Source of the DNA: Pseudolabrys sp.
GTDB taxonomy: Bacteria; Pseudomonadota; Alphaproteobacteria; Rhizobiales; Xanthobacteraceae
Direction of reading: 5' to 3'
Length of the DNA: 64,000 nt
Assembly: GCA_017849615.1 (NCBI GenBank)
Contig: JAFIGS010000017.1
Location: forward strand, 124,001-188,000
Shown piece after piece: positions 4,206-64,000 of the stretch; position 1 is the first letter of the stretch; every line of letters starts with the position of its first letter. The position numbers and the translations under genes were made by a program. A model generated the notes under the pieces. That model was not told where the DNA came from. It made no database searches and was given only the letters and a program-made list of their open reading frames with translations.

Positions 4206-5360
4206 TCAGCTCCGAAATGCGTCGAGCCCCGTGAGTTCGCGCCCCTGAATGAGCGCGAGGATCTCATTGGTGGCGTCCGGGATCGGCAGCATGCGCACGT
4301 CGCGATACATCGCCTCGAGCTTGGCTTCGCGGCTGATGCCCATGGCGCCATGCACCTGGATCGCCAGCGAAATGGCGTCATGGCAGGCGGTGGTCGCGTA
4401 GCGCTTGGCCATCGCCGAAGTGCCGTTAGCGCGTTCGCCGCGATCGATAGCGTCGAGCGCGTAATAGCAGAGCAGACGGCTGGTGGTGATCGCGGTCTGG
4501 ATGTCGGCGAGGTTTTTCTGAATCAGCTGGAAGCCACCGATGGCCTTGCCGAACTGCTTGCGCATGCCGGCATAGGAAACCGCCGCGTCGAACGCCTTCT
4601 GCGCGAGCTGTGTCGCGGCAAGACCGACCAGCGGACGGTTGCCGTTCCAGGTCAGGGTCAGCACCTTGGCGGCGTCTCCCGCCGAGCCGAGCGCGTTGTT
4701 CCTCGGCGTTTTGGTGTTGTCGAAGAAAACTTCGGCAAGATGGCCCTGGCGCAGCCCGAGCGTCGCGGTTTCCTGGGTCTTGAAGTCCGACGTACCGCGC
4801 TCGCAGACGACACGGCGCATGCGGATCGAACCGTCGGCCTGGGTTTCGCCGCAGGTGACGTTGATGGTGTCGCAGATGGAGGCGTTGGTAATCCAGGCTT
4901 TGCTGCCGTTGATTACCAGCATGTCGCCGTCTTCGCGCACACGGGTTTTGACGCCGCGCGGATCGGAGCCGATATCCGGTTCGGTGGTGCCGGTGCAGCA
5001 GATCTTTTTGCCCTCGAACAGAGGCGTGAGAATGCGCTCGCGCTGGTCCGGCGTGCTTTCGGCATAGATGCGCGCGATGGTGCACTCATGCGCCAGAAGC
5101 GAGATCGCCACCATGGCGGGCAGCTGTTCGAACATCAGGCCGTAGTTCAACATGCTCATGCCGGAGCCGCCGGCCGATTCCGGCAAGCGCGGCGCTGTCA
5201 GCCCCTGGCTCGCCAGCACGCCGTAGATGCGCAGCATCTCTTCCTTCGGCAGCGGGGTATCGGCATCGTTGCGGTCAAGCACCGGCTGGATGTCGCGTTC
5301 CACCATGCGGATGGCGGAATCGCGCACCATGGTCTGTTCGTCGGAAAGTGTGAATTGCAT
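4206..5360 (-). CDS. Acyl-CoA dehydrogenase
   Basis: 384 residues, the normal length for a soluble FAD-dependent acyl-CoA dehydrogenase that forms a 2,3-double bond and passes electrons to electron-transfer flavoprotein. Visible landmarks are the N-terminal helical domain (MQFTLSDEQTMVRDSAIRMV), the middle-domain segment CTGTTEPDIGSDP, and the C-terminal YRDVRMLPIPDATNEI region holding the candidate catalytic Glu. The gene sits between the BadH-like SDR and the tandem CoA-transferase in the leftward operon. In that setting it is a candidate for the cyclohexanecarboxyl-CoA (BadJ-like) oxidation step or its equivalent on a related cyclic or branched substrate. That assignment is inference. Confidence 0.92.
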   Translation of the reverse strand: MQFTLSDEQTMVRDSAIRMVERDIQPVLDRNDADTPLPKEEMLRIYGVLASQGLTAPRLPESAGGSGMSMLNYGLMFEQLPAMVAISLLAHECTIARIYAESTPDQRERILTPLFEGKKICCTGTTEPDIGSDPRGVKTRVREDGDMLVINGSKAWITNASICDTINVTCGETQADGSIRMRRVVCERGTSDFKTQETATLGLRQGHLAEVFFDNTKTPRNNALGSAGDAAKVLTLTWNGNRPLVGLAATQLAQKAFDAAVSYAGMRKQFGKAIGGFQLIQKNLADIQTAITTSRLLCYYALDAIDRGERANGTSAMAKRYATTACHDAISLAIQVHGAMGISREAKLEAMYRDVRMLPIPDATNEILALIQGRELTGLDAFRS

Positions 5361-16100: not shown

Positions 16101-17015
16101 CTAGATCTCGGAGAAAGCGCGCCGGCCCGGCACGGGCATGTCGGCCTGCAGGATCGTTCCCGTCTCGGACTCCGTGATGTAGAGCCGCCGCCGGTCCGGT
16201 CCGCCGTAAACCACATTCGTTGTGTGCGCGCCGGCGCATGAGTTAATGCGCAGCATCGGCTCGCCGCGCGCGCTGAACAGCCAGACTACGCCCAGGCCGA
16301 TATGTGCGACGACGAGGTTGCCCTGTTCGTCAATGGTGATGCCGTCGGGACCGCCGCCGCCGCTGAGCTGGATGAAGGTGCCAACCTTGGCCACCGAGCC
16401 GTCCTTCATCAGCGGCACCCGCCAGATCGCATTGGCGCGCGTGACCGCGACATAGAGGACGGTCTCGCTGGGATCGAGGACGAGCCCGTTCGGGCTCGGT
16501 ACGTTGTCCAGCAGACAATCGACCTCGCCGCTGGCGCGCACGCGAAACACCCGGCCGGTCTGATCGTGCCAGCCGGTCAATCCCTGATCGGTGAAATAGA
16601 TGTCGCCGTTGGAGGCGAAGGTCAGATCGTTGACCGCCTTGAGACGCTCGAGCCGCACGCGGGTCACGAAAGGCGACACCTTCCCCGTGGCCGGGTCGAG
16701 CGTCACGATGCCATGCTTGTAGTCGGCGATGAAAATCCGGCCGTCGCGATGAAACGTCAGGCCATTGGGCTCGCCGTCATATTCGGCAACCAGCGTGAAC
16801 TCCCCTTTCGGGGTTACGCGGAAAACACGGCCCCAGGGAATATCGACGCAGTACAGATTGCCGTCGCGATCGAAGGCCGGCCCTTCGAGCAGAGAATGCG
16901 CCGGCAGCACGCCCGGCTGATGCCTGTGCCATTCGGAATCCGGCGCGGACTTGCGGAACTCATCCGGCAGACGCGCGAAAACGCTGGCAGTGACGGCAGG
17001 CGGCGGTGCAAACAC
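16101..17015 (-). CDS. SMP-30/gluconolactonase/LRE-family lactonase
   Basis: 304 residues forming a six-bladed beta-propeller of the SMP-30 type, with repeated blades such as EGPAFDRDGNLYCVDIPWG, NGLTFHRDGRIFIADYKHG and NDLTFASNGDIYFTDQG. Conserved Glu near 44, Asn near 130 and Asp in VADYKHG-like positions fit the single divalent-metal site of the family. Such enzymes hydrolyse aldonolactones to acids. It follows the TRAP-transporter genes in the same leftward direction, 44 bp after dctM, so the imported substrate may be a sugar lactone or its acid. There is no signal peptide, so a cytoplasmic location is likely. Confidence 0.85.
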   Translation of the reverse strand: MFAPPPAVTASVFARLPDEFRKSAPDSEWHRHQPGVLPAHSLLEGPAFDRDGNLYCVDIPWGRVFRVTPKGEFTLVAEYDGEPNGLTFHRDGRIFIADYKHGIVTLDPATGKVSPFVTRVRLERLKAVNDLTFASNGDIYFTDQGLTGWHDQTGRVFRVRASGEVDCLLDNVPSPNGLVLDPSETVLYVAVTRANAIWRVPLMKDGSVAKVGTFIQLSGGGGPDGITIDEQGNLVVAHIGLGVVWLFSARGEPMLRINSCAGAHTTNVVYGGPDRRRLYITESETGTILQADMPVPGRRAFSEI

Positions 17016-17059
17016 GTCGGGTTTCCTCGATCACACAATCAGGCGCGAAAGGCGTGCCG

Positions 17060-18355
17060 TCACTTCATCACGGCCGGCAGCCACAATGCAATCTGCGGAA
17101 ATGCGTAAAGCAGGAATGCGAAGCCGATGATGATGCCGCAATATGGCAATGACGCTTTGGCGACATCGCCAAGGGTGCGGTCCGGGACGATCGACTGGAC
17201 GGCGAAAAGGTTGAGCCCCATCGGCGGCGTCAAGGCGCCGAGCTCGATGAAGACGACGAGAATGATGCCGACCCATACGCCGTCGAAGCCGAGCGTCGCC
17301 AGCGACGGATAGAGCAGCGGCACGGTCAGCAACACGATCGACAGGCCGTCGATGAACATGCCGATAATCAGATAAACGAACAGCAGCACGCAGAAAAACA
17401 GCAGCGGCGAGATCTGCAGGCCCGCCAGCCAGGCTGCAAGGCCATGGCCGATGCCGGAAGATACAATCGCGAAGTTGAGGATCTGCGCGTTGATCGTCAC
17501 GAACATGATCACCGCGCTGGTCAGCACCGTGTTGCGCAACGCGCGCCAGAACCCTTCCGGCGTCATTTCGCGGTAAAGAAGCGCGAGCAGCAGCGCGAGC
17601 AGGCTGCCGAAGCCGGAGGCCTCGGTCGGCGTGACGATGCCGGTATACATGCCGCCGATCACGGCGGAGATCAGAAGGACGATCGGGAACGAGTCCCTCG
17701 CCGCGCGCATGTACTCGATCTTGCCGACCGGCTTGGCCGGCACCAGGCTCGGCTGGAACCAGACCCGCACCATGACGTAGATCGAGAACAGACCTGCGAG
17801 AAGGAGGCCCGGCACGATGCCGGCCATGAACAGATCGATGATCGATTCCTGCGTCATCGAGCCGTAGACGATGAGCGGAATGCTCGGCGGAATGAGAATG
17901 CCGAGGCAGCCGCCCGCCGTCAGTGTGCCGAGCGTCAAGGTGTCGGAATAGCCGTGCGAGCGCATCTCGCGCGTCGCCACCGTGCCGACCGTCAGCGCCG
18001 TGGCGACGGAAGATCCGGCGATGGCCGAGAACACCGCGCAGCCGAAGATGTTCGTCTGCGCCAGACCACCGGGGACGTGGCGGAACAACCCGGCAATGCC
18101 CGAATAAAACCGCGTGGCGATGCCGCTTTGCAGGATGAGTTCGCCCATCAGCACGAAAAGCGGGATCGAAACCAGGTTGAAATTCGTGGTCGTATTCCAG
18201 ACCACGTCGCCGAAGGTCGGCCAGAGCATCATGCCCGACGCGAGGGTGATGCCCATCATGCCGACGAAGCCCATGCTGGCGCCGATGCTCACGCCGCCGG
18301 CGATGCAGCCGATCAGCGTGAGGCCGTAGATCAGAAGCGCGTCGGTCCAGCTCAT
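17060..18355 (-). CDS. TRAP transporter large membrane subunit, DctM type
   Basis: 431 residues with about twelve hydrophobic segments, the ion-coupled transport subunit of a tripartite ATP-independent periplasmic transporter. GCLGILIPPSIPLIVYG near residue 155 and LGALTPPMGLNLFAVQ near residue 360 are the two family repeats that build the substrate/sodium sites. The ATG shares one base with the dctQ stop (TAATG), consistent with the two forming one membrane complex. Confidence 0.94.
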   Translation of the reverse strand: MSWTDALLIYGLTLIGCIAGGVSIGASMGFVGMMGITLASGMMLWPTFGDVVWNTTTNFNLVSIPLFVLMGELILQSGIATRFYSGIAGLFRHVPGGLAQTNIFGCAVFSAIAGSSVATALTVGTVATREMRSHGYSDTLTLGTLTAGGCLGILIPPSIPLIVYGSMTQESIIDLFMAGIVPGLLLAGLFSIYVMVRVWFQPSLVPAKPVGKIEYMRAARDSFPIVLLISAVIGGMYTGIVTPTEASGFGSLLALLLALLYREMTPEGFWRALRNTVLTSAVIMFVTINAQILNFAIVSSGIGHGLAAWLAGLQISPLLFFCVLLFVYLIIGMFIDGLSIVLLTVPLLYPSLATLGFDGVWVGIILVVFIELGALTPPMGLNLFAVQSIVPDRTLGDVAKASLPYCGIIIGFAFLLYAFPQIALWLPAVMK

Positions 18356-18876
18356 TAGTCCAACCCGTGGAGAATTTCGGTTTCCTGCGCCGATTCGCGG
18401 TGCAGAAGCGCAAGCGCCGTCTGCTCGACGAAAGCGAGCGTCAGCAGGGCGAAGCCGATCGGCAGGATGGCCTGGGGAATGACGAGCGGCACCTGGACCG
18501 CCTGCAGCGAAACGGTGCCGTAGCTCCAGCTCGTCCAGGCAAGCTCGAACGTGGTCCAGGCCAGAACCGCGCTCATGCCCGCCCCGATAACACCGCCAAT
18601 CACCTTGAGGATGGTCTGGATCGCCGGCGGCACGCGGTTGATCACCGCCTCAACCCTGAGGAAGCGGCCATGGCGCAGCGCCGGCACCAGGCACAACAGC
18701 GTCGCCGCGGTGAAGAAATATCCGGCGAACTCATCGGAAATCTGGGTGGAGCGGCCGAACAAGGTGCGGCCGAACACTTCGACGTTCATCAGCAACCCCA
18801 TCAGCAGCACGGATACGATCGCGGCTGCGATGGCGACACGTTCGAGACGGTCGAGAAGGGATGAAATGGCGGTCAT
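18355..18876 (-). CDS. TRAP transporter small membrane subunit, DctQ type
   Basis: 173 residues with four hydrophobic helices, the normal form of DctQ. The segment VFGRTLFGRSTQISDEFAGY after the first helix is typical. It lies between dctP and dctM in the leftward operon and overlaps dctM by one base. DctQ supports the DctM elevator domain and is required for transport. Confidence 0.92.
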   Translation of the reverse strand: MTAISSLLDRLERVAIAAAIVSVLLMGLLMNVEVFGRTLFGRSTQISDEFAGYFFTAATLLCLVPALRHGRFLRVEAVINRVPPAIQTILKVIGGVIGAGMSAVLAWTTFELAWTSWSYGTVSLQAVQVPLVIPQAILPIGFALLTLAFVEQTALALLHRESAQETEILHGLD

Positions 18877-18931
18877 CTGCGGGCCAATGGAAGTGCGGCG
18901 GATCGCGACATTGCGATCCGCCGTCCGTTAG

Positions 18932-19936
18932 TTATTTGCAGGCCTCGATCGCGGCGGCCAGCATCTGCTTGCCGGAGTTGCCGACCTTGGCGGCCCACTC
19001 GTCGGAGATCGGCTTCGTCATGTCGCGGAGCTTGGCTTCCTCGGCCGGCGAGGCGTCGCGCAGCGTCATGCCGCGCTCGGCCAAGGTCTTGCGCGCAGTC
19101 TGATCGGCCTCGATCATCTCGGCACGATAGCGCGGCGCCCATGCCTTGGTCTTGGCGATCAGGATGTCACGCACATCGGCCGGCAGCGCGTCGAGGGCGG
19201 CCTTGTTCACCGCGAGCACCTGATGCGCCAGCGTCAGGTTGATCATGTAGCCGAACTTCGTGACCTCGTTGAATTTCCAGTCGAGCGCCGGCACCGCCGC
19301 GGTGAAAGCGCCGTCGACCACGCCGCGCTGCAGGGCGGGAATGACCTCGGCCGGTGTGATGGTGACGCCCGAGCCGCCGACGAGGCGCATCATCTCGGCC
19401 TGCTCGCGGTTCCACGAGCGCACTTTGAGATTTTTCAGACCTTCGATGCCCGCAACCGGCTTGGCGAGCCAGAGCTGCTGCGGCGGCATCGCCCAGTGCA
19501 TGATCGGATCGACCTTGAACTTGGTCTGCATCACCTGGGATACGACCGGCGTAATGGCGGGCACCGCCTTGTCGTAAAACTTGTCGATCGAAGTGCAGGA
19601 GAACGGCATCGACAGCGCGTTTAGCTCGGGCACGTCGCCGGCAACGAAGCCGAGGGCGACGTCGCCCATCTGCACCTGATTGCCGGCGGTGATGCGCAGA
19701 ACGTCCGATGCTTTGTAGGGCAGTTCGCTCGCGGCAAAGACAGTGATCTTCAAACGGCCGCCGGTCGCCTTGGTGACGTCCTCGGCGAAGGCGCGGTGGA
19801 GCAGCGTCGGTTTATCCTTGGCGCCGAAGTAGGTGTAGAGCTTCCAGTCGGCGTCGGCCGCCATGGACGGCGCGGTCAGCGGCGCCACCAGGGCGCCGAG
19901 GGCGACCAAAGCGCGGAAGACGTGCGGCAGCTTCAT
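18932..19936 (-). CDS. TRAP transporter periplasmic solute-binding protein, DctP type
   Basis: 334 residues from ATG 19936, preceded by a strong GGGGAGGA site. A signal peptide (MKLPHVFRALVALGALVAPL, cleavage near SMAADA) leads into the DctP fold. The family arginine that salt-bridges a carboxylate ligand is most likely in NLKVRSWNREQAEMM near residue 175. First gene of the leftward operon, divergent from the DeoR regulator. The linked kinase, dehydrogenase and dehydratase point to a C4-C6 sugar acid or lactone as ligand. The frame extends upstream of 19936 across the control region but that part is not coding. Confidence 0.92.
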   Translation of the reverse strand: MKLPHVFRALVALGALVAPLTAPSMAADADWKLYTYFGAKDKPTLLHRAFAEDVTKATGGRLKITVFAASELPYKASDVLRITAGNQVQMGDVALGFVAGDVPELNALSMPFSCTSIDKFYDKAVPAITPVVSQVMQTKFKVDPIMHWAMPPQQLWLAKPVAGIEGLKNLKVRSWNREQAEMMRLVGGSGVTITPAEVIPALQRGVVDGAFTAAVPALDWKFNEVTKFGYMINLTLAHQVLAVNKAALDALPADVRDILIAKTKAWAPRYRAEMIEADQTARKTLAERGMTLRDASPAEEAKLRDMTKPISDEWAAKVGNSGKQMLAAAIEACK

Positions 19937-59718: not shown

Positions 59719-59747
59719 TTGCAATCAAATTGAGCGGGGCGTATAAA
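59719..59747 (+). promoter_or_regulatory. Probable sigma-70-type promoter of the Cys-Ala peptide gene
   Basis: TTGCAA at 59719-59724 and TATAAA at 59742-59747 are separated by exactly 17 bp, close to the housekeeping consensus and unusual in such GC-rich DNA. The first start codon downstream is that of the peptide gene at 59823, giving a leader of about 70 bases with a strong GGGAGG site at 59811-59816. Confidence 0.65.
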
Positions 59748-59822
59748 ACACGCGCATAACTGGTACTTCATGCCCTGGACAATCAGGTTTGGCAACTTGA
59801 GTTCAACAAAGGGAGGCGTTCC

Positions 59823-60038
59823 ATGGACGTCAAGAAGCTCTCAGTGAAGGATGCCACGGCGGCCGCAGCGCGTTGTGCCGCAACAGCGGCTGAATGCGCG
59901 GCGAAGGCGGCCAAGTGTGCGGCCAATGCCGCGCGATGTGCAGCGACGGCGGCCGAAGCCAAGGCCAGGGCAGCCGCGGCCAAGTGCGCGGCAACCGCAG
60001 CGCGCTGCGCGGCAACCGCAGCGAAGTGCGGAGCCTGA
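59823..60038 (+). CDS. Candidate RiPP precursor: Cys-Ala heptad-repeat peptide
   Basis: 71 residues with GGGAGG 6 bases before the ATG. After a short possible leader (MDVKKLSVKDATAAAAR) comes a repeated heptad, Cys-Ala-Ala-x-Ala-Ala-(Glu/Lys/Arg). Cys occur at 18, 25, 32, 39, then, after a 9-residue spacer in which the expected Cys is Ala46, at 55, 62 and 69. Ala is over half of all residues. Such spacing would place every Cys on one face of a helix. The next gene encodes a DUF692/MNIO enzyme, a family that modifies Cys- or Asn-containing precursors. Also possible is a small structural or metal-binding protein, but the neighbours favour a modified peptide. Confidence 0.8.
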   Translation: MDVKKLSVKDATAAAARCAATAAECAAKAAKCAANAARCAATAAEAKARAAAAKCAATAARCAATAAKCGA

Positions 60039-60072
60039 CACCGGCAATCAAGGCACGGGATCTGAAGGTATC

Positions 60073-60099
60073 GGCGCGCCGCCGTCGAGGTGGCGCGCC
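60073..60099 (+). promoter_or_regulatory. GC-rich hairpin between precursor and MNIO genes
   Basis: Two copies of GGCGCGCC (60073-60080 and 60092-60099), each self-complementary, can pair to give an 8-bp stem with an 11-base loop. There is no T-run after it, and the MNIO ribosome-binding site GGAGG starts 3 bases later. It could cause partial termination or protect the peptide mRNA, so that precursor exceeds enzyme; it could also mask the enzyme's ribosome-binding site. Confidence 0.5.
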
Positions 60100-60116
60100 A
60101 ACCGGAGGCATCGGGT

Positions 60117-61037
60117 ATGAGCGTTCCACGCCTCGGCGTCGGCCTGCAATTCAATCCGGAACTCATCGGCTGGTTTCCGTTTCTTGACCAGCCGCTCGAT
60201 GCGCTTGAGATCCTCTTCGACTCCGTGATGAGTCCCCTCGATGGCCCGGGCTTGCTGTCGCCCAAGGCCATCGACCTCATCGGTGACATCACCGGCAAAT
60301 TCCCCCTTATCGGGCATTCGAATTACGGCGGCGACTTCGGATTCGACGATCTGATGCGCACGGCCGCGGCACGGCGGCATGTCCCGCTCGCGAAGAAGCT
60401 GAACGTCAACTGGGTCGCGAACCATTGCTTCTACAGCGACGCCTCCTGGTCGGACGTCTGGAGCAGTCCGCTGCAGTTCTCGCGCGCCGAGGCCGCGCGC
60501 GTCGCCACGAGAGCGCGTGCTCTTCAGGACCTCTACGGCGTTCCCCTCGCTCACGAGAACGCCGCATACTACCGGCCTTGCCCGGGCAGCGAGATGCCCG
60601 AAGAAGAGTTTCTCGCGCTCACGCTGCAACAATCCGGGTCGTATCTGCACCTTGACCTGCATAATGTGTATGCCAACGAGCAGAACCACGGCGCGAACGG
60701 CTATTCGGCGCGGCGCTTTCTCGACACGATCCCCCTCGACCGCGTCGTCTGCATTCATATGGCGGGCGGCCGCTGGATCGACGGTCAGTACCACGACCTC
60801 CACGACACGCGCGTGCCGGAAGCGGTCTGGGATCTGCTCGACGATGTTCTCTCCCGCGCGCGCCCCGGCGCCGTCATCCTGGAATATGAGACGGAAGCCC
60901 TTCTCTGCGACGGTGAGACCCTCGATACCGAACGCACCACAGACGTGATCCTCGCCGACCTCGAGCGAGGCCGCAACGCCTGGGACCGTGCCTATGGTCC
61001 GGCAAGCCGCCGCACGACCCGTAGCGAGGCCGCGTGA
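60117..61037 (+). CDS. DUF692/MNIO-family enzyme (multinuclear iron RiPP maturase)
   Basis: 306 residues from ATG 60117 (GGAGG upstream), normal family length. The family's metal ligands are readable: His67 (GHSNYGGDF), His103 (NHCFYSD), Glu147-Asn148 (AHENAAYY), Asp180, Asn183 and His191 (LHLDLHNVYANEQNHG), His214 (CIHMAGG), His229-Asp230 (HDLHDTR) and a late Glu in ILEYETE. Known members bind two or three irons and oxidatively rewrite Cys residues (methanobactin MbnB, TglH, oxazolin/bufferin enzymes) or Asp. The repetitive Cys peptide encoded just upstream is the obvious substrate. Coupled by TGATG to the next gene. Confidence 0.88.
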   Translation: MSVPRLGVGLQFNPELIGWFPFLDQPLDALEILFDSVMSPLDGPGLLSPKAIDLIGDITGKFPLIGHSNYGGDFGFDDLMRTAAARRHVPLAKKLNVNWVANHCFYSDASWSDVWSSPLQFSRAEAARVATRARALQDLYGVPLAHENAAYYRPCPGSEMPEEEFLALTLQQSGSYLHLDLHNVYANEQNHGANGYSARRFLDTIPLDRVVCIHMAGGRWIDGQYHDLHDTRVPEAVWDLLDDVLSRARPGAVILEYETEALLCDGETLDTERTTDVILADLERGRNAWDRAYGPASRRTTRSEAA

Positions 61038-61930
61038 TGGACGCCCGGCTGGTGTGGGACACCTGGCGGCGGGTTCTGACCGAAGACGATCTCGTCGCGT
61101 GGATTGCGGATCCTGGCGGCCGCGCGGAAAACTCCGTCCGTTTCGACGGCGACGAGCGGAAAATTCTGGACGACTACGCGAGCACGCCGGCGGCGACCGA
61201 GCAGAATATCTACATGTACCGTCGCGGACTGGTCAGGAACGGCCTCGGCGCGCTCAACATGGTGCCGCTGACACGCCGCATACTCCGCGCCAGCGGACTC
61301 GACCTCGATGAGATTGCCGAGATGTTCGCGCGCTCGTCCGGCTACCGCGATTACGGGCCGAATTTCTGGAGCAATGCCGCCGATTTCGTCGCTTTCCTGG
61401 CCCCTCATCCGGAATTCGCATCGCCGGCGCGACAGGATGTGATTGCTATCGATACAGCGACGATCGCGCTTGCGCGTCGTCTGGGCGTGTCAGCCCCGCC
61501 GGTCTGGCCCGACCGCATGATGGTCGCAGGCGCGGGCCACGAAATCCATTGGGACACCGCCCGTTTCATCGCCAATCCTGCGGCGGTGATCGTGCGATCG
61601 TCGTGCGATATCAGCGCCTGGATCGAGAATCCCTTCGCGTTCGATCCTGCTGTGGAGCCCGAGGCTTCATCGCGGCACTGGCTGATCTATTTCCCGGCCG
61701 CCGAGGCCGCGCACGAATACGCGGAACTGTCCGAACGATGCGCCCGCGTTTTCTCCACGCTTGCAACGCCCAGCACCGCGGCGGAAGTCTCGGCTGCGTT
61801 GGGCGACCTTTCTCTCGACGACGTACGCGGCCTTGTCGGCTCGCTCACCGCGCTCGGCGTGGTCGGCCCGGCGACCGAGGTGCGCCGCTCTCCGTTGTCG
61901 CGCCGGACCGCCGGCGCAGCCGCGCCATGA
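61037..61930 (+). CDS. Probable MNIO partner/precursor-binding protein
   Basis: 297 residues from ATG 61037, which overlaps the MNIO stop (GTG 61034 is an alternative). MNIO enzymes normally need a partner protein, encoded next to them, that binds the precursor leader. This protein has no catalytic motif I recognise. The N-terminal 120 residues are helical (WRRVLTEDDLVAWIADPGGR), the middle has beta-strands (EIHWDTARFIANPAAVIVRS), and the C-terminal 60 residues (CARVFSTLATPSTAAEVSAA, then LSLDDVRGLVGSLTALGVVG) look like a winged helix as in PqqD-like recognition domains. Family assignment comes mainly from position. Confidence 0.6.
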   Translation: MDARLVWDTWRRVLTEDDLVAWIADPGGRAENSVRFDGDERKILDDYASTPAATEQNIYMYRRGLVRNGLGALNMVPLTRRILRASGLDLDEIAEMFARSSGYRDYGPNFWSNAADFVAFLAPHPEFASPARQDVIAIDTATIALARRLGVSAPPVWPDRMMVAGAGHEIHWDTARFIANPAAVIVRSSCDISAWIENPFAFDPAVEPEASSRHWLIYFPAAEAAHEYAELSERCARVFSTLATPSTAAEVSAALGDLSLDDVRGLVGSLTALGVVGPATEVRRSPLSRRTAGAAAP

Positions 61931-63699
61931 GACAGTTCGACCCGCCAGCGGGCGTCGGCGAGCCCCCTGCGTCGGGCCGGCTGCCGAACGATGCGTTCGT
62001 CCTGCTCGACCCGGCCGTCGACGTCCTCGATACCGGGGCCGGCGAATATCATCTGCTCAGCCATGGGCATTTCGAAGCCGGCATGGTGGTGCCGCCGGGC
62101 GACGGCCTGCTCGCCTTCGTGACCGCGCTGCGGCAACCCATCAACCTCGCCCACTTGCGCGCGCAGTTCGACGATCAGGACATGATCGACAAGATGCTGG
62201 CCTCGCTGCTCCGGCACGGCTTCATCCATGTCACCTCGCCGTCGCCGCTATCCGCGGAGGAACTCGCGCGGCATCGATCGATCGCACGGGAAACGCGCGA
62301 CCTGGCGCTCCGCCACACCGTCGTGATTGATCTCGATACGCCGATATCGGCGGAGAAGATTTGCGATCGCCTGCGCGAGGAGACGGCCGCGCCCGAATTG
62401 CTGCTGCAATGCGCCCGGCTGGCAGACCACAAGGCCCTATTCGCCGAGCTCGCGCGCTTGCGGCAGTCCGGCGTCATCCGGATACATCAAACGATCGTGC
62501 AGACCGGGCGCCTCTCGGGCGATCCGGACCTTTGCCGTTCGCTCAACCGCGTCGGCGCGTCCGTCACGCTCGACGCCGTATCCTGGCCCGTGCCCGACGC
62601 TTCCCCGCCCGCGCTCGACGCAATGACACGTCATCGCGTCGCCGTGCACGCGCTGATGACGCCGGACTTGTCGATCCTCGACGCGGCGGTGCGCAGGCAG
62701 GCGCAGGATTGGGCGAGCGCGATGTTCATCTCCGGCCTGTGCCTGCGTCTGGACCCGGAGGCGCTCTGGCCGGACCGCGATGCCGGCGAAGACGACTTCA
62801 TCGCCCTGTTCGAAGCGGTGCTGGCAATCGAGAATGAATTCGGCGATGTGGCAATCGTAAACCTGCCGAGCGACGAGGTACTCCTCGGCAACACGGCTTC
62901 GTCGATGCCGGACGATCGGCCGGCCGGCTTCGCCGGTGACTTTCGCACAGCCTATCTGCGATGGCGTCTGCCCATCCTGAAGGCGTGCGAGAACGACAAC
63001 AGCTGGAGTCAGATACCCGAGGCCGAGGACAGACTGGTCCGCGCGCAGGACGATCTGCTGCCCAACCACCCTGACTTGCTGAAATTGCGTCCGGGTAGCG
63101 TCCTGGTCGATGTATGCGGCGGCCTGGGACGGGTTGCACGACGTTTGTCGCCCGCGGTCGGCGACGACGGGCTCGTCATCTCAATCGAAATGTATCGGTG
63201 CCTGAGCGACCGGGCGCGCCGGTTCGCTTGCGAGCGCAACTTCACGAACCTGCATTTTCGCCCGGGCTTGGCGCAGCGCCTTCCCTTGCCCGACGCCACG
63301 GCGGACGCGGCCGTCAACGAGTGGACCGGCGGAATATGGGAGTTGGGACTTGGGCCGGCCATGATCGGCGAGATGGCGCGGGTCGTCCGGCCCGGCGGCC
63401 GCATCGCGGTCACCCACCGGCTCGTCCGGCTTTCGCTCGACGCGCTGGCCCGGCCCTGGGTCCAATACGACGACATCTACAAATGGATACGCGAGGCCTT
63501 CGTGCATCCGGGCCTCTCCATCGTAGTGGAGCGCATCTGGGGACAGATCGTGCCGTCGATGATCGGCGACAACGCCACGCTCTGGCGCAAGCAGTACATG
63601 CCGCGCCTGATCAACCCTTACGACGTCATTTACAAATCCGACGACGGCCCGGGAGCACGCGCCGACGTCTACCTGACGATCATCGCACAACGGCAGTGA
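61927..63699 (+). CDS. Fusion of PqqD-like N-terminal region and class I SAM methyltransferase
   Basis: 590 residues from ATG 61927 (ATGA overlap). Residues 1-105 resemble a PqqD-type peptide-recognition winged helix (VLDTGAGEYHLLSHGHFEAG, then MIDKMLASLLRHGFIHVTS). Residues 120-340 form a mixed alpha/beta region (DPDLCRSLNRVGASVTLDAV) that could be a degenerate radical-SAM-like barrel, but no CxxxCxxC motif is present. From about 385 a Rossmann methyltransferase begins: VLVDVCGGLGRVARRL binds S-adenosylmethionine, and MARVVRPGGRIAVTHRLV is the late motif. I infer methylation of the modified peptide; the middle part is unassigned. Confidence 0.7.
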   Translation: MRQFDPPAGVGEPPASGRLPNDAFVLLDPAVDVLDTGAGEYHLLSHGHFEAGMVVPPGDGLLAFVTALRQPINLAHLRAQFDDQDMIDKMLASLLRHGFIHVTSPSPLSAEELARHRSIARETRDLALRHTVVIDLDTPISAEKICDRLREETAAPELLLQCARLADHKALFAELARLRQSGVIRIHQTIVQTGRLSGDPDLCRSLNRVGASVTLDAVSWPVPDASPPALDAMTRHRVAVHALMTPDLSILDAAVRRQAQDWASAMFISGLCLRLDPEALWPDRDAGEDDFIALFEAVLAIENEFGDVAIVNLPSDEVLLGNTASSMPDDRPAGFAGDFRTAYLRWRLPILKACENDNSWSQIPEAEDRLVRAQDDLLPNHPDLLKLRPGSVLVDVCGGLGRVARRLSPAVGDDGLVISIEMYRCLSDRARRFACERNFTNLHFRPGLAQRLPLPDATADAAVNEWTGGIWELGLGPAMIGEMARVVRPGGRIAVTHRLVRLSLDALARPWVQYDDIYKWIREAFVHPGLSIVVERIWGQIVPSMIGDNATLWRKQYMPRLINPYDVIYKSDDGPGARADVYLTIIAQRQ

Positions 63700-63738
63700 G
63701 GCTACCGGACTCGCAGTGGCAGGGCGTGAGGGACGACG

Positions 63739-64000
63739 ATGAGACCGCGGGAAGCTGCATTCGACGAAGCCCTCTCATCGCTGCGCCGGCTCGGCATTCC
63801 CGCCGTGCTGCCGGCGTTGCACGCCGCCGGCGTCGGCGTCAGGCGTACCGTTCTCGGCGGCTCGCACTCCGTGGCGATCTATCCGCCGATCGATTCCCTC
63901 ACGCCCCTCGAACCGCGGGACGCCATCGAGGGCATCGGCTGGGGCAAGGAGACGAGCCTCTACGTCCACATCGCATTTTGCGAAACGCGATGCACGTTCT
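63739..64000 (+). CDS. HemN-like radical SAM protein, N-terminal part; runs off the right edge
   Basis: 87 codons are visible from ATG 63739. The N-terminus ends in SLYVHIAFCETRCTF, the start of the CxxxCxxC motif in the form Y-V-H-I-x-F-C found in HemN-type (class C methylase or coproporphyrinogen oxidase-like) radical SAM enzymes; the third Cys would be the next codon, beyond the edge. No haem-synthesis genes are nearby. As the fifth gene in line with the Cys-Ala peptide and MNIO genes it is probably a second peptide-modifying enzyme of that cluster. Confidence 0.82.
   Translation, partial: MRPREAAFDEALSSLRRLGIPAVLPALHAAGVGVRRTVLGGSHSVAIYPPIDSLTPLEPRDAIEGIGWGKETSLYVHIAFCETRCTF

What the first reader, a model, noticed from the sequence alone, without database searches (positions are those of the whole stretch)
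59719..64000. Candidate new RiPP pathway: Cys-Ala heptad peptide with MNIO, PqqD-methyltransferase fusion and HemN-like radical SAM
A precursor-like peptide, an MNIO enzyme with its metal ligands in place, a putative partner, a 590-residue recognition/methyltransferase fusion and a HemN-like radical SAM protein follow one another with overlaps or short gaps behind one promoter. Known MNIO pathways (methanobactin, 3-thiaglutamate, oxazolin/bufferin, aminopyruvatide types) have different precursors; I know of none with Ala-rich heptads carrying Cys every seventh residue together with these two SAM enzymes. Novelty is judged from memory.
Basis: partly seen in the sequence, partly recalled or inferred. 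Interest (0 to 1): 0.93.

Follow-up and report, generated by a model that had tools for sequence, protein, structure and literature searches.

The report
Cysteine-repeat peptide with carbon-excising enzymes
A rare six-gene bacterial cluster seems to make a small alanine-rich peptide and then cut a carbon atom out of its regularly spaced cysteines, a reaction that the papers we saw report only for the last residue of a carrier peptide.

Summary
A 71-aa peptide with seven Cys (five of six intervals exactly 7) precedes an MNIO, a partner, a 590-aa methyltransferase protein and a HemN-like radical SAM enzyme. A sixth gene, just outside the window, encodes a CmoA-like SAM enzyme. The same six genes occur in six other loci (Bradyrhizobium, Sphingomonas, Burkholderia, a same-family relative); a profile finds one peptide in each of the 7 genomes or records, directly before the MNIO. 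The MNIO is 56% identical to TglH (27-29% to four other MNIOs), keeps all nine TglH iron ligands and, in 7 of 7, the Asn73 reported essential for Cys beta-carbon excision. The partner is TglI-like. But no PEARL was found, nor relatives of the tmo-type methyltransferase, B12 radical SAM or protease, and the Cys are gene-encoded and internal. Best reading: a PEARL-free relative of pearlin pathways that excises beta-carbons inside the chain and caps the mercaptoglycines with SAM enzymes. Not confirmed: 'PqqD' in the 590-aa protein (the RRE signal lies in the partner) and the promoter. Carboxy-SAM synthesis is doubtful (CmoA Arg199 lost, 7 of 7). New variant of a known kind; chemistry untested.

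The parts
59810..59816 (+). ribosome-binding-site-like AGGGAGG before the precursor
   Evidence: read from the sequence; GGAG is invariant in the 5 of 7 loci that were aligned upstream
59823..60038 (+). precursor peptide, 71 aa: leader-like MDVKKLSVK, then Ala-rich heptads with [RKE]-C-[AG]; 7 Cys
   Evidence: homologues before the MNIO in 7 of 7 loci
60117..61037 (+). MNIO (PF05114), TglH-type, 306 aa; alternative GTG start at 60090
   Evidence: PF05114 2.7e-37; TglH 8hci_D 1.5e-110; 55.8% identity, nine iron ligands kept; Asn73 equivalent kept
61034..61930 (+). TglI-like partner protein with C-terminal RRE-like region
   Evidence: NF058584 TglI 1.3e-24, 87 bits against a cut-off of 450; 8hci_C 1.3e-17; hhalign to a PqqD profile 76.6%
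61927..63699 (+). 590-aa protein: residues 1 to about 345 without a family match, residues about 385-510 a class I SAM methyltransferase domain
   Evidence: fused to the partner in Burkholderia
63739..64000 (+). HemN-like radical SAM protein, first 87 codons; the gene continues to window-equivalent 65271 (L002:4739-6271), followed outside the window by the CmoA-like SAM enzyme L002:6259-7005 (window-equivalent 65259-66005)

Best explanation
The cluster is a PEARL-free relative of the TglHI (3-thia-amino-acid) pathways. The DVKKLSV leader of the precursor is held by the RRE of the TglI-like partner; the TglH-type MNIO, with O2, removes the beta-carbon of gene-encoded Cys residues in the heptads (as formate), leaving 2-mercaptoglycine residues inside the chain. 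These thiols are handed to SAM enzymes of the cluster: the methyltransferase domain of the 590-aa protein (fused to the partner in Burkholderia) and/or the CmoA-like protein alkylate the sulfur (methyl more likely than carboxymethyl), and the HemN-like radical enzyme adds or rearranges a one-carbon unit. The product would be a peptide carrying several 3-thia-amino-acid residues. Shown by computation: gene content, conservation, catalytic residues, clade. Inferred: every reaction, their order, and that several internal Cys (rather than one) are processed.
For: MNIO identical to TglH at 159 of 285 aligned residues, with all nine Fe ligands named in PMC10880893 (passages) kept in 7 of 7. Asn73, reported there as essential and present only in TglH and orthologues (passages), is kept in 7 of 7 ours and 3 of 3 TmoH-like, 0 of 4 other MNIOs. 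Window protein 54-56% identical to TglH/TmoH-like versus 27-29% to four other MNIOs; 58 positions shared by these 11 sequences and absent from the 4. Partner TglI-like. Precursor under purifying selection, 7-10 Cys, one hit per genome or record, before the MNIO, 7 of 7. Five enzymes plus peptide in 7 of 7 loci. Partner fused to the methyltransferase protein in Burkholderia. Precedent for the logic: TmoHI excision, TmoS S-methylation, TmoD radical alkylation (PMC9303977: section 4 part 1 of 2 and section 11).
Against: Both characterised relatives act on a C-terminal Cys, and TglHI needs a set distance from its F[N/D]LD motif to the Cys (passages of PMC9016710); these 7 precursors have no Phe and no C-terminal Cys. 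The cluster's MNIOs form a branch of their own (support 97) with 25 fixed differences from TglH and TmoH-like. None of the cluster's SAM enzymes is recognisably related to the methyltransferase or the B12 radical SAM protein of a tmo-type locus, and no CmoB/TglF-type family appeared. In-chain mercaptoglycine is expected to be labile (my chemistry, not a result). No transporter or protease is shared by the loci within the flanks held. No expression or mass data.
Confidence: 0.55

Rival explanations
1. Carrier-peptide model: only one Cys (the last, after trimming) is processed to a 3-thia-amino acid that is released as a small molecule; the other heptads are scaffold, as in tgl and tmo but with a gene-encoded Cys.
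For: TmoHI accepts a gene-encoded C-terminal Cys (PMC9303977); TglHI-type residues.
Against: No Cys is C-terminal in 7 of 7 precursors; Cys number varies from 7 to 10 with a polar residue before and Ala, Gly or Ser after every one; the protease-like protein of a tmo-type locus (L035) has no tblastn match in the six other loci and none among the window cluster's six proteins below E 0.01; no PEARL found. TglG itself was not searched for.
Confidence: 0.13
2. Metallophore model: the MNIO turns internal Cys into thiooxazole or oxazolone/thioamide groups that bind copper, as in bufferins, oxazolins and methanobactins.
For: Multiple internal Cys in a short peptide; a PpoB2-type copper chaperone and a tyrosinase lie upstream in Burkholderia.
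Against: MNIO has the TglH-type Asn and only 27-29% identity to four other MNIOs; the partner is TglI-like and matches no DUF2063 or MbnC family; no signal-peptide-like hydrophobic stretch in any precursor (read by eye); nothing outside the six genes is shared by the loci.
Confidence: 0.12
3. In-chain 3-thiaglutamate: the CmoA-like protein makes carboxy-SAM and the 590-aa methyltransferase carboxymethylates each mercaptoglycine, as TglE/TglF do.
For: CmoA model TIGR00740 at 1.8e-40, best PDB match CmoA 4gek 1.1e-39; TglE is a CmoA homologue (PMC10491745, passages).
Against: Arg199, which salt-bridges the carboxylate in CmoA (PMC3663124, passages), is A/S/T in 7 of 7 (residue number from the 14-residue tag offset of 4gek); score below the family cut-off of 193.3; no CmoB/TglF-like family hit. 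Not closed: two invariant Arg (R173, R178) could replace it, and TglE's own residue was not available.
Confidence: 0.12
4. The peptide acts unmodified as a Cys-lined helical metal- or redox-binding protein and the enzymes modify something else.
For: Ala-rich heptads would be helical (general knowledge); Cys regularly spaced and polar-flanked.
Against: Peptide and five modifying-type proteins are linked in 7 of 7 loci, with an RRE-like partner; in the 7 genomes or records searched the peptide was found only beside the MNIO.
Confidence: 0.05

Closest known systems
tgl cluster (3-thiaglutamate, Pseudomonas syringae; TglA, B, H, I, F, E, G)
   Same: TglH-type MNIO with Asn73 and iron ligands; TglI-like RRE partner; a CmoA-family protein beside them
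   Different: no PEARL found and no CmoB-type (TglF) family hit; Cys gene-encoded, 7-10 per peptide and internal; extra HemN-like radical SAM and 590-aa methyltransferase protein; CmoA-like protein lacks Arg199
tmo cluster (3-thiahomoleucine, Tistrella mobilis; TmoA, B, H, I, S, D, G, T)
   Same: MNIO/partner pair; possibly the logic of excision, S-alkylation by a SAM enzyme, then a radical SAM step
   Different: radical SAM is HemN-like, not B12-binding; of the L035 tmo-type proteins compared, only MNIO and partner have relatives here
Bufferins / oxazolins / methanobactins (other MNIO RiPPs)
   Same: MNIO superfamily; several internal Cys in the precursor
   Different: partner of DUF2063 or MbnC type, Sec signal peptides in bufferins and oxazolins (PMC12452194); the four non-TglH MNIOs compared here are only 27-29% identical
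Class C radical SAM methylases (NosN/NocN, TbtI, C10P)
   Same: HemN-like by sequence, CxxxCxxC and the HemN Tyr position; NocN is the best solved match (1.7e-19)
   Different: substrate and reaction unknown; the match covers only residues 73-275

Membership tests
TglH-type MNIO (peptidyl 2-mercaptoglycine synthase) | iron ligands of TglH (nine residues) | tested here: met
   9 of 9 in 7 of 7 sequences; list from PMC10880893 passages
TglH-type MNIO (peptidyl 2-mercaptoglycine synthase) | Asn73, reported essential and TglH-specific | tested here: met
   Asn in 7 of 7; 0 of 4 outgroup MNIOs; role from PMC10880893 passages
TglH-type MNIO (peptidyl 2-mercaptoglycine synthase) | TglI-type partner with RRE | tested here: met
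   8hci_C 1.3e-17; RRE-like C-terminus; NCBIfam TglI score 87 is below its 450 cut-off
TglH-type MNIO (peptidyl 2-mercaptoglycine synthase) | beta-carbon excision of peptidyl Cys | not testable with these tools
   needs mass spectrometry
Pearlins | PEARL that appends the amino acid | tested here: not met
   PF04738 in 0 of 7 genomes/records (none of the 14 control genomes rang, but the model finds a tmo-type PEARL at 5.3e-20); that PEARL has no tblastn hit in the six other loci
Pearlins | modified residue at the C-terminus of a carrier with FxLD/E motif | tested here: not met
   no C-terminal Cys and no Phe in 7 of 7 precursors
Bufferin/oxazolin/methanobactin MNIO RiPPs | DUF2063 or MbnC partner | tested here: not met
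   no Pfam family for the window's partner at E up to 1
Bufferin/oxazolin MNIO RiPPs | Sec signal peptide on the precursor | tested here: inconclusive
   none seen by eye in the seven sequences; no predictor was run
Carboxy-SAM synthase (CmoA/TglE) | CmoA family sequence | tested here: inconclusive
   TIGR00740 139 bits against cut-off 193.3
Carboxy-SAM synthase (CmoA/TglE) | Arg199 binding the carboxylate | tested here: not met
   A/S/T in 7 of 7
HemN-like (class C) radical SAM | CxxxCxxC and the Tyr six residues before its first Cys | tested here: met
   C81, C85, C88 and Y75 invariant in 7 of 7; role of HemN Tyr56 from PMC12871812 passages, its spacing to Cys62 recalled. All NCBIfam HemN-type models score below their cut-offs
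HemN-like (class C) radical SAM | two SAM bound; one-carbon transfer | not testable with these tools
   -
PqqD/RRE domain in the 590-aa protein | detectable PqqD-like sequence | tested here: not met
   no PqqD among Pfam matches of 7 of 7 members; hhalign 0.9%; profile shallow (Neff 1.8), so a diverged RRE is not excluded

The most novel reading that the evidence does not exclude
An iterative, in-chain Cys beta-carbon-excising RiPP system: one MNIO converts most of 7-10 heptad cysteines of a helical peptide into 2-mercaptoglycine residues, which two S-alkylating SAM enzymes and a dual-SAM radical enzyme turn into an array of 3-thia-amino-acid residues of a kind not yet described, possibly with a SAM derivative other than carboxy-SAM made by the CmoA-like protein.
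Probability: 0.4. Interest if true: 0.88.

Novelty: new variant of a known kind. Interest (0 to 1): 0.72.

Why it matters
Beta-carbon excision from Cys is reported, in the papers seen here, only at the C-terminal Cys of a carrier peptide (tgl, tmo). A TglHI-type pair linked to a precursor with many internal, gene-encoded Cys and no detectable PEARL would show that the reaction can rewrite ribosomal peptide chains at repeated positions, and would be a route to peptides with N,S-acetal residues. It also links a HemN-like radical SAM enzyme and a diverged CmoA-type enzyme to this chemistry, and a natural partner-methyltransferase gene fusion suggests direct hand-over of the unstable thiol. The reading is cheaply testable by co-expression and mass spectrometry.

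Tried and rejected
Rejected: (a) reading the MNIO as an uncharacterised type: it is TglH-type. (b) Reading the CmoA-like gene as a plain carboxy-SAM synthase: Arg199 missing. (c) PqqD in the 590-aa protein: no support, nor does that region resemble the partner's RRE by profile comparison; the middle region does not resemble the cluster's radical SAM protein and matches no NCBIfam model. (d) Defence system: PADLOC gave only matches of the two methyltransferase domains to mad2, which I take as generic. (e) A Cys stripe on one helix face: the Cys resultant on a 100-degree wheel was not unusual against random placement in any of the 7 peptides (window: 1921 of 20,000 random sets as high or higher; lowest 1146, highest 7960), because of the breaks. 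(f) A conserved promoter: no sigma-70-like site and no obvious shared motif beyond GGAG in an alignment of 5 of the 7 upstream regions. (g) Viral contigs: no relative. (h) tblastn of the precursor in plasmids found nothing although one plasmid record holds a homologue; I put this down to the low-complexity filter, so that search says nothing.

Led nowhere: structure prediction of the 590-aa protein (job interrupted; tool then switched off), so the fold of its N-terminal part is unknown. Literature searches listed no paper that I could recognise as describing this cluster; they cover open-licence PMC papers only. The MNIO survey PMC12452194 names adjamnio-1 and -2 precursors whose sequences are in a supplement I could not open, so identity with one of those groups is not excluded.
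Full report
WHAT IS THERE. The window lies at G000:C35:124001-188000; the cluster runs off its right end, so I read on (L002; window position = L002 position + 59000). Six genes follow one another on the + strand: precursor 59823-60038; MNIO 60117-61037; partner 61034-61930; 590-aa protein 61927-63699; radical SAM protein 63739 to window-equivalent 65271; CmoA-like protein 65259-66005. The next + strand ORF is AllG-like and not part of the unit.

IS THE PEPTIDE REAL. MDVKKLSVKDATAAAARCAATAAECAAKAAKCAANAARCAATAAEAKARAAAAKCAATAARCAATAAKCGA has 7 Cys, five of six intervals equal to 7. Shuffling its residues reached this in 0 of 100,000 trials; the same test on the six homologues gave 0 for five and 4 for L005. 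Against the L020 homologue, 20 codons are identical, 38 differ synonymously and 13 non-synonymously, with differences by codon position 10/8/46. Homologues lie in front of the MNIO in all six other loci, 74-88 aa with 7 to 10 Cys; each of the seven has at least one break of 9 or 16 residues. A profile of the seven gave exactly one hit in each of 7 genomes or records, each directly before the MNIO. The profile was built from these same seven, and only genomes known to hold the cluster were searched, so this tests for extra copies, not for peptides in genomes without an MNIO of this kind.

DISTRIBUTION. Loci: window; L003 Bradyrhizobium yuanmingense, L004 Bradyrhizobium sp. Ghvi, L005 Sphingomonas kyeonggiensis (genome-contig scan); L020 (G193, unnamed, same family as the window's genome); L019 (G791, unnamed, same genus as L003); L009 Burkholderia stagnalis plasmid plas2. 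The five enzymes and the peptide are present in each. The unit is rare. MNIO hits: 2 of 198 genomes of the family, the window's own included (E up to 1e-30); 3 of 242 of the Bradyrhizobium-type genus, two being the seeds (1e-40); 1 of 398 of the phylum, the window's own (1e-40); 1 of 249 of the family of the Sphingomonas genome, the seed (1e-40); 4 of 385 of its class, one the seed and three of another type, below (1e-30). The 590-aa protein: 1 of 385 of the class, the window's own. Plasmids: 1 of 72,556 records for either protein. An all-against-all comparison of ORFs of at least 90 aa found nothing outside the cluster genes shared by all loci, within the flanks held; pairs of loci do share a few neighbours (see noticed in passing).

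THE MNIO. PF05114 at 2.7e-37; it scores far below the cut-offs of the NCBIfam HvfB, BufB, ApyH and ChrH models. Its best solved relative is TglH (8hci_D, 1.5e-110), 159 of 285 aligned residues identical. All nine iron ligands named for TglH are kept in 7 of 7 (ligand list from passages of PMC10880893). [quoted passage not shown] the equivalent Asn is present in 7 of 7 here and 3 of 3 TmoH-like sequences, and in 0 of 4 other MNIOs taken from three of the same genomes. Fifty-eight positions are shared by ours, TglH and TmoH-like and differ from all four outgroups; 25 differ in a fixed way between ours and TglH plus TmoH-like. In the tree ours form one group (support 97) apart from TglH and the TmoH-like sequences; the outgroup attaches on the TglH branch with weak support (63), so it is not settled whether ours are sister to, or nested among, the excision-type enzymes. 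TglH and TmoH-like are 65-66% identical to each other, ours 54-56% to them (window protein).

THE TMO COMPARISON. Three unnamed class members (G1461, G1589, G1686; L035-L037) carry MNIOs 56% identical to the window's. I read one, L035: the MNIO sits with a B12-binding radical SAM protein, a TmoI-like protein, a PEARL (PF04738, 5.3e-20), a membrane protein with an HExxH-like motif and a methyltransferase. That is the tmo layout described in PMC9303977 (passages, outline, section 4 part 1 of 2, section 11); the Tmo names for these genes are my assignment. Against the window cluster's six proteins only the MNIO and the partner are related, and of the L035 proteins other than the MNIO only TmoI-like matched in the six other loci.

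THE OTHER PROTEINS. Partner: TglI by NCBIfam 1.3e-24 (below cut-off), TglI chain 1.3e-17, RRE/PqqD-like C-terminus by hhalign (76.6%, E 2.1e-5). In Burkholderia the partner and this protein are a single 867-aa chain, which argues that they work together. Radical SAM: closest NCBIfam models STM4012, HutW, HemW, HemZ and HemN, all below cut-off; best solved match NocN; invariant CxxxCxxC and the preceding Tyr. CmoA-like: TIGR00740 1.8e-40 but below its cut-off (138.7 against 193.3 bits); Arg199 of CmoA is Ala, Ser or Thr in 7 of 7 (numbering from the 14-residue tag of 4gek); Arg173 and Arg178 are invariant.

HOW IT PROBABLY WORKS. See the best explanation. Supported by sequence: a TglI-type partner, a TglH-type catalytic site, linkage of SAM enzymes. 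Inferred: that excision happens on internal Cys, how many, which SAM enzyme caps the thiol, and what the radical enzyme adds. I put 0.55 on Cys beta-carbon excision in the chain followed by SAM-dependent capping, and 0.4 on the fuller claim that most Cys are processed to a new array of 3-thia residues.

MEMBERSHIP AND NOVELTY. It probably works like a TglHI pathway; it is not filed as a pearlin, since no PEARL was found and the target is not C-terminal. It does not meet the tested features of bufferins, oxazolins or methanobactins. No listed paper was recognised as describing it (open-licence PMC only, titles and starts of abstracts). For PMC12452194 I saw the outline, section 17 and passages; 'methyltransferase', 'HemN' and 'PqqD' do not occur in its main text; its adjamnio-1 and -2 precursors could not be compared. 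Other papers were seen as passages only (PMC9016710; PMC10880893; PMC12783734; PMC3663124; PMC10491745; PMC10214503; PMC9062424; PMC12871812; PMC12636315). Verdict: real, rare, new variant of a known kind, interest 0.72.

Noticed in passing
L005:2459-3484 and 4226-5167: In Sphingomonas two extra genes lie before the precursor on the same strand: a haem-oxygenase-like iron protein (PF14518, 6e-12) and another methyltransferase, with the CmoA-like gene between them.
   Followed up: partly
L009:8140-10743: Natural fusion of the TglI-like partner with the 590-aa-type methyltransferase protein in Burkholderia stagnalis.
   Followed up: yes
L009:950-3909 and 16948-19734: The Burkholderia cluster lies near a tyrosinase, a PpoB2-type copper chaperone, DUF7868 and, downstream, isocyanide synthase genes.
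   Followed up: no
L005:5205-5543 (-) and L009:12335-12664 (-): A small cupin-like protein (annotated 'DHCW motif cupin' in L009), 54% identical, lies beside the cluster in two distant hosts.
   Followed up: no
L003:12394-12957 (-), L004:11529-12134 (-), L019: A protein related in all three Bradyrhizobium-type loci lies near the cluster; the L003 copy is LuxR-like, just below the Pfam cut-off.
   Followed up: no
L035, L036, L037: Three unnamed class members carry TmoH-like MNIOs; L035 was read and has PEARL, B12 radical SAM and methyltransferase genes.
   Followed up: partly
window 59783-60298 (-): A long open frame runs antisense to the precursor and MNIO start; probably a by-product of GC-rich Ala codons.
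   Followed up: no
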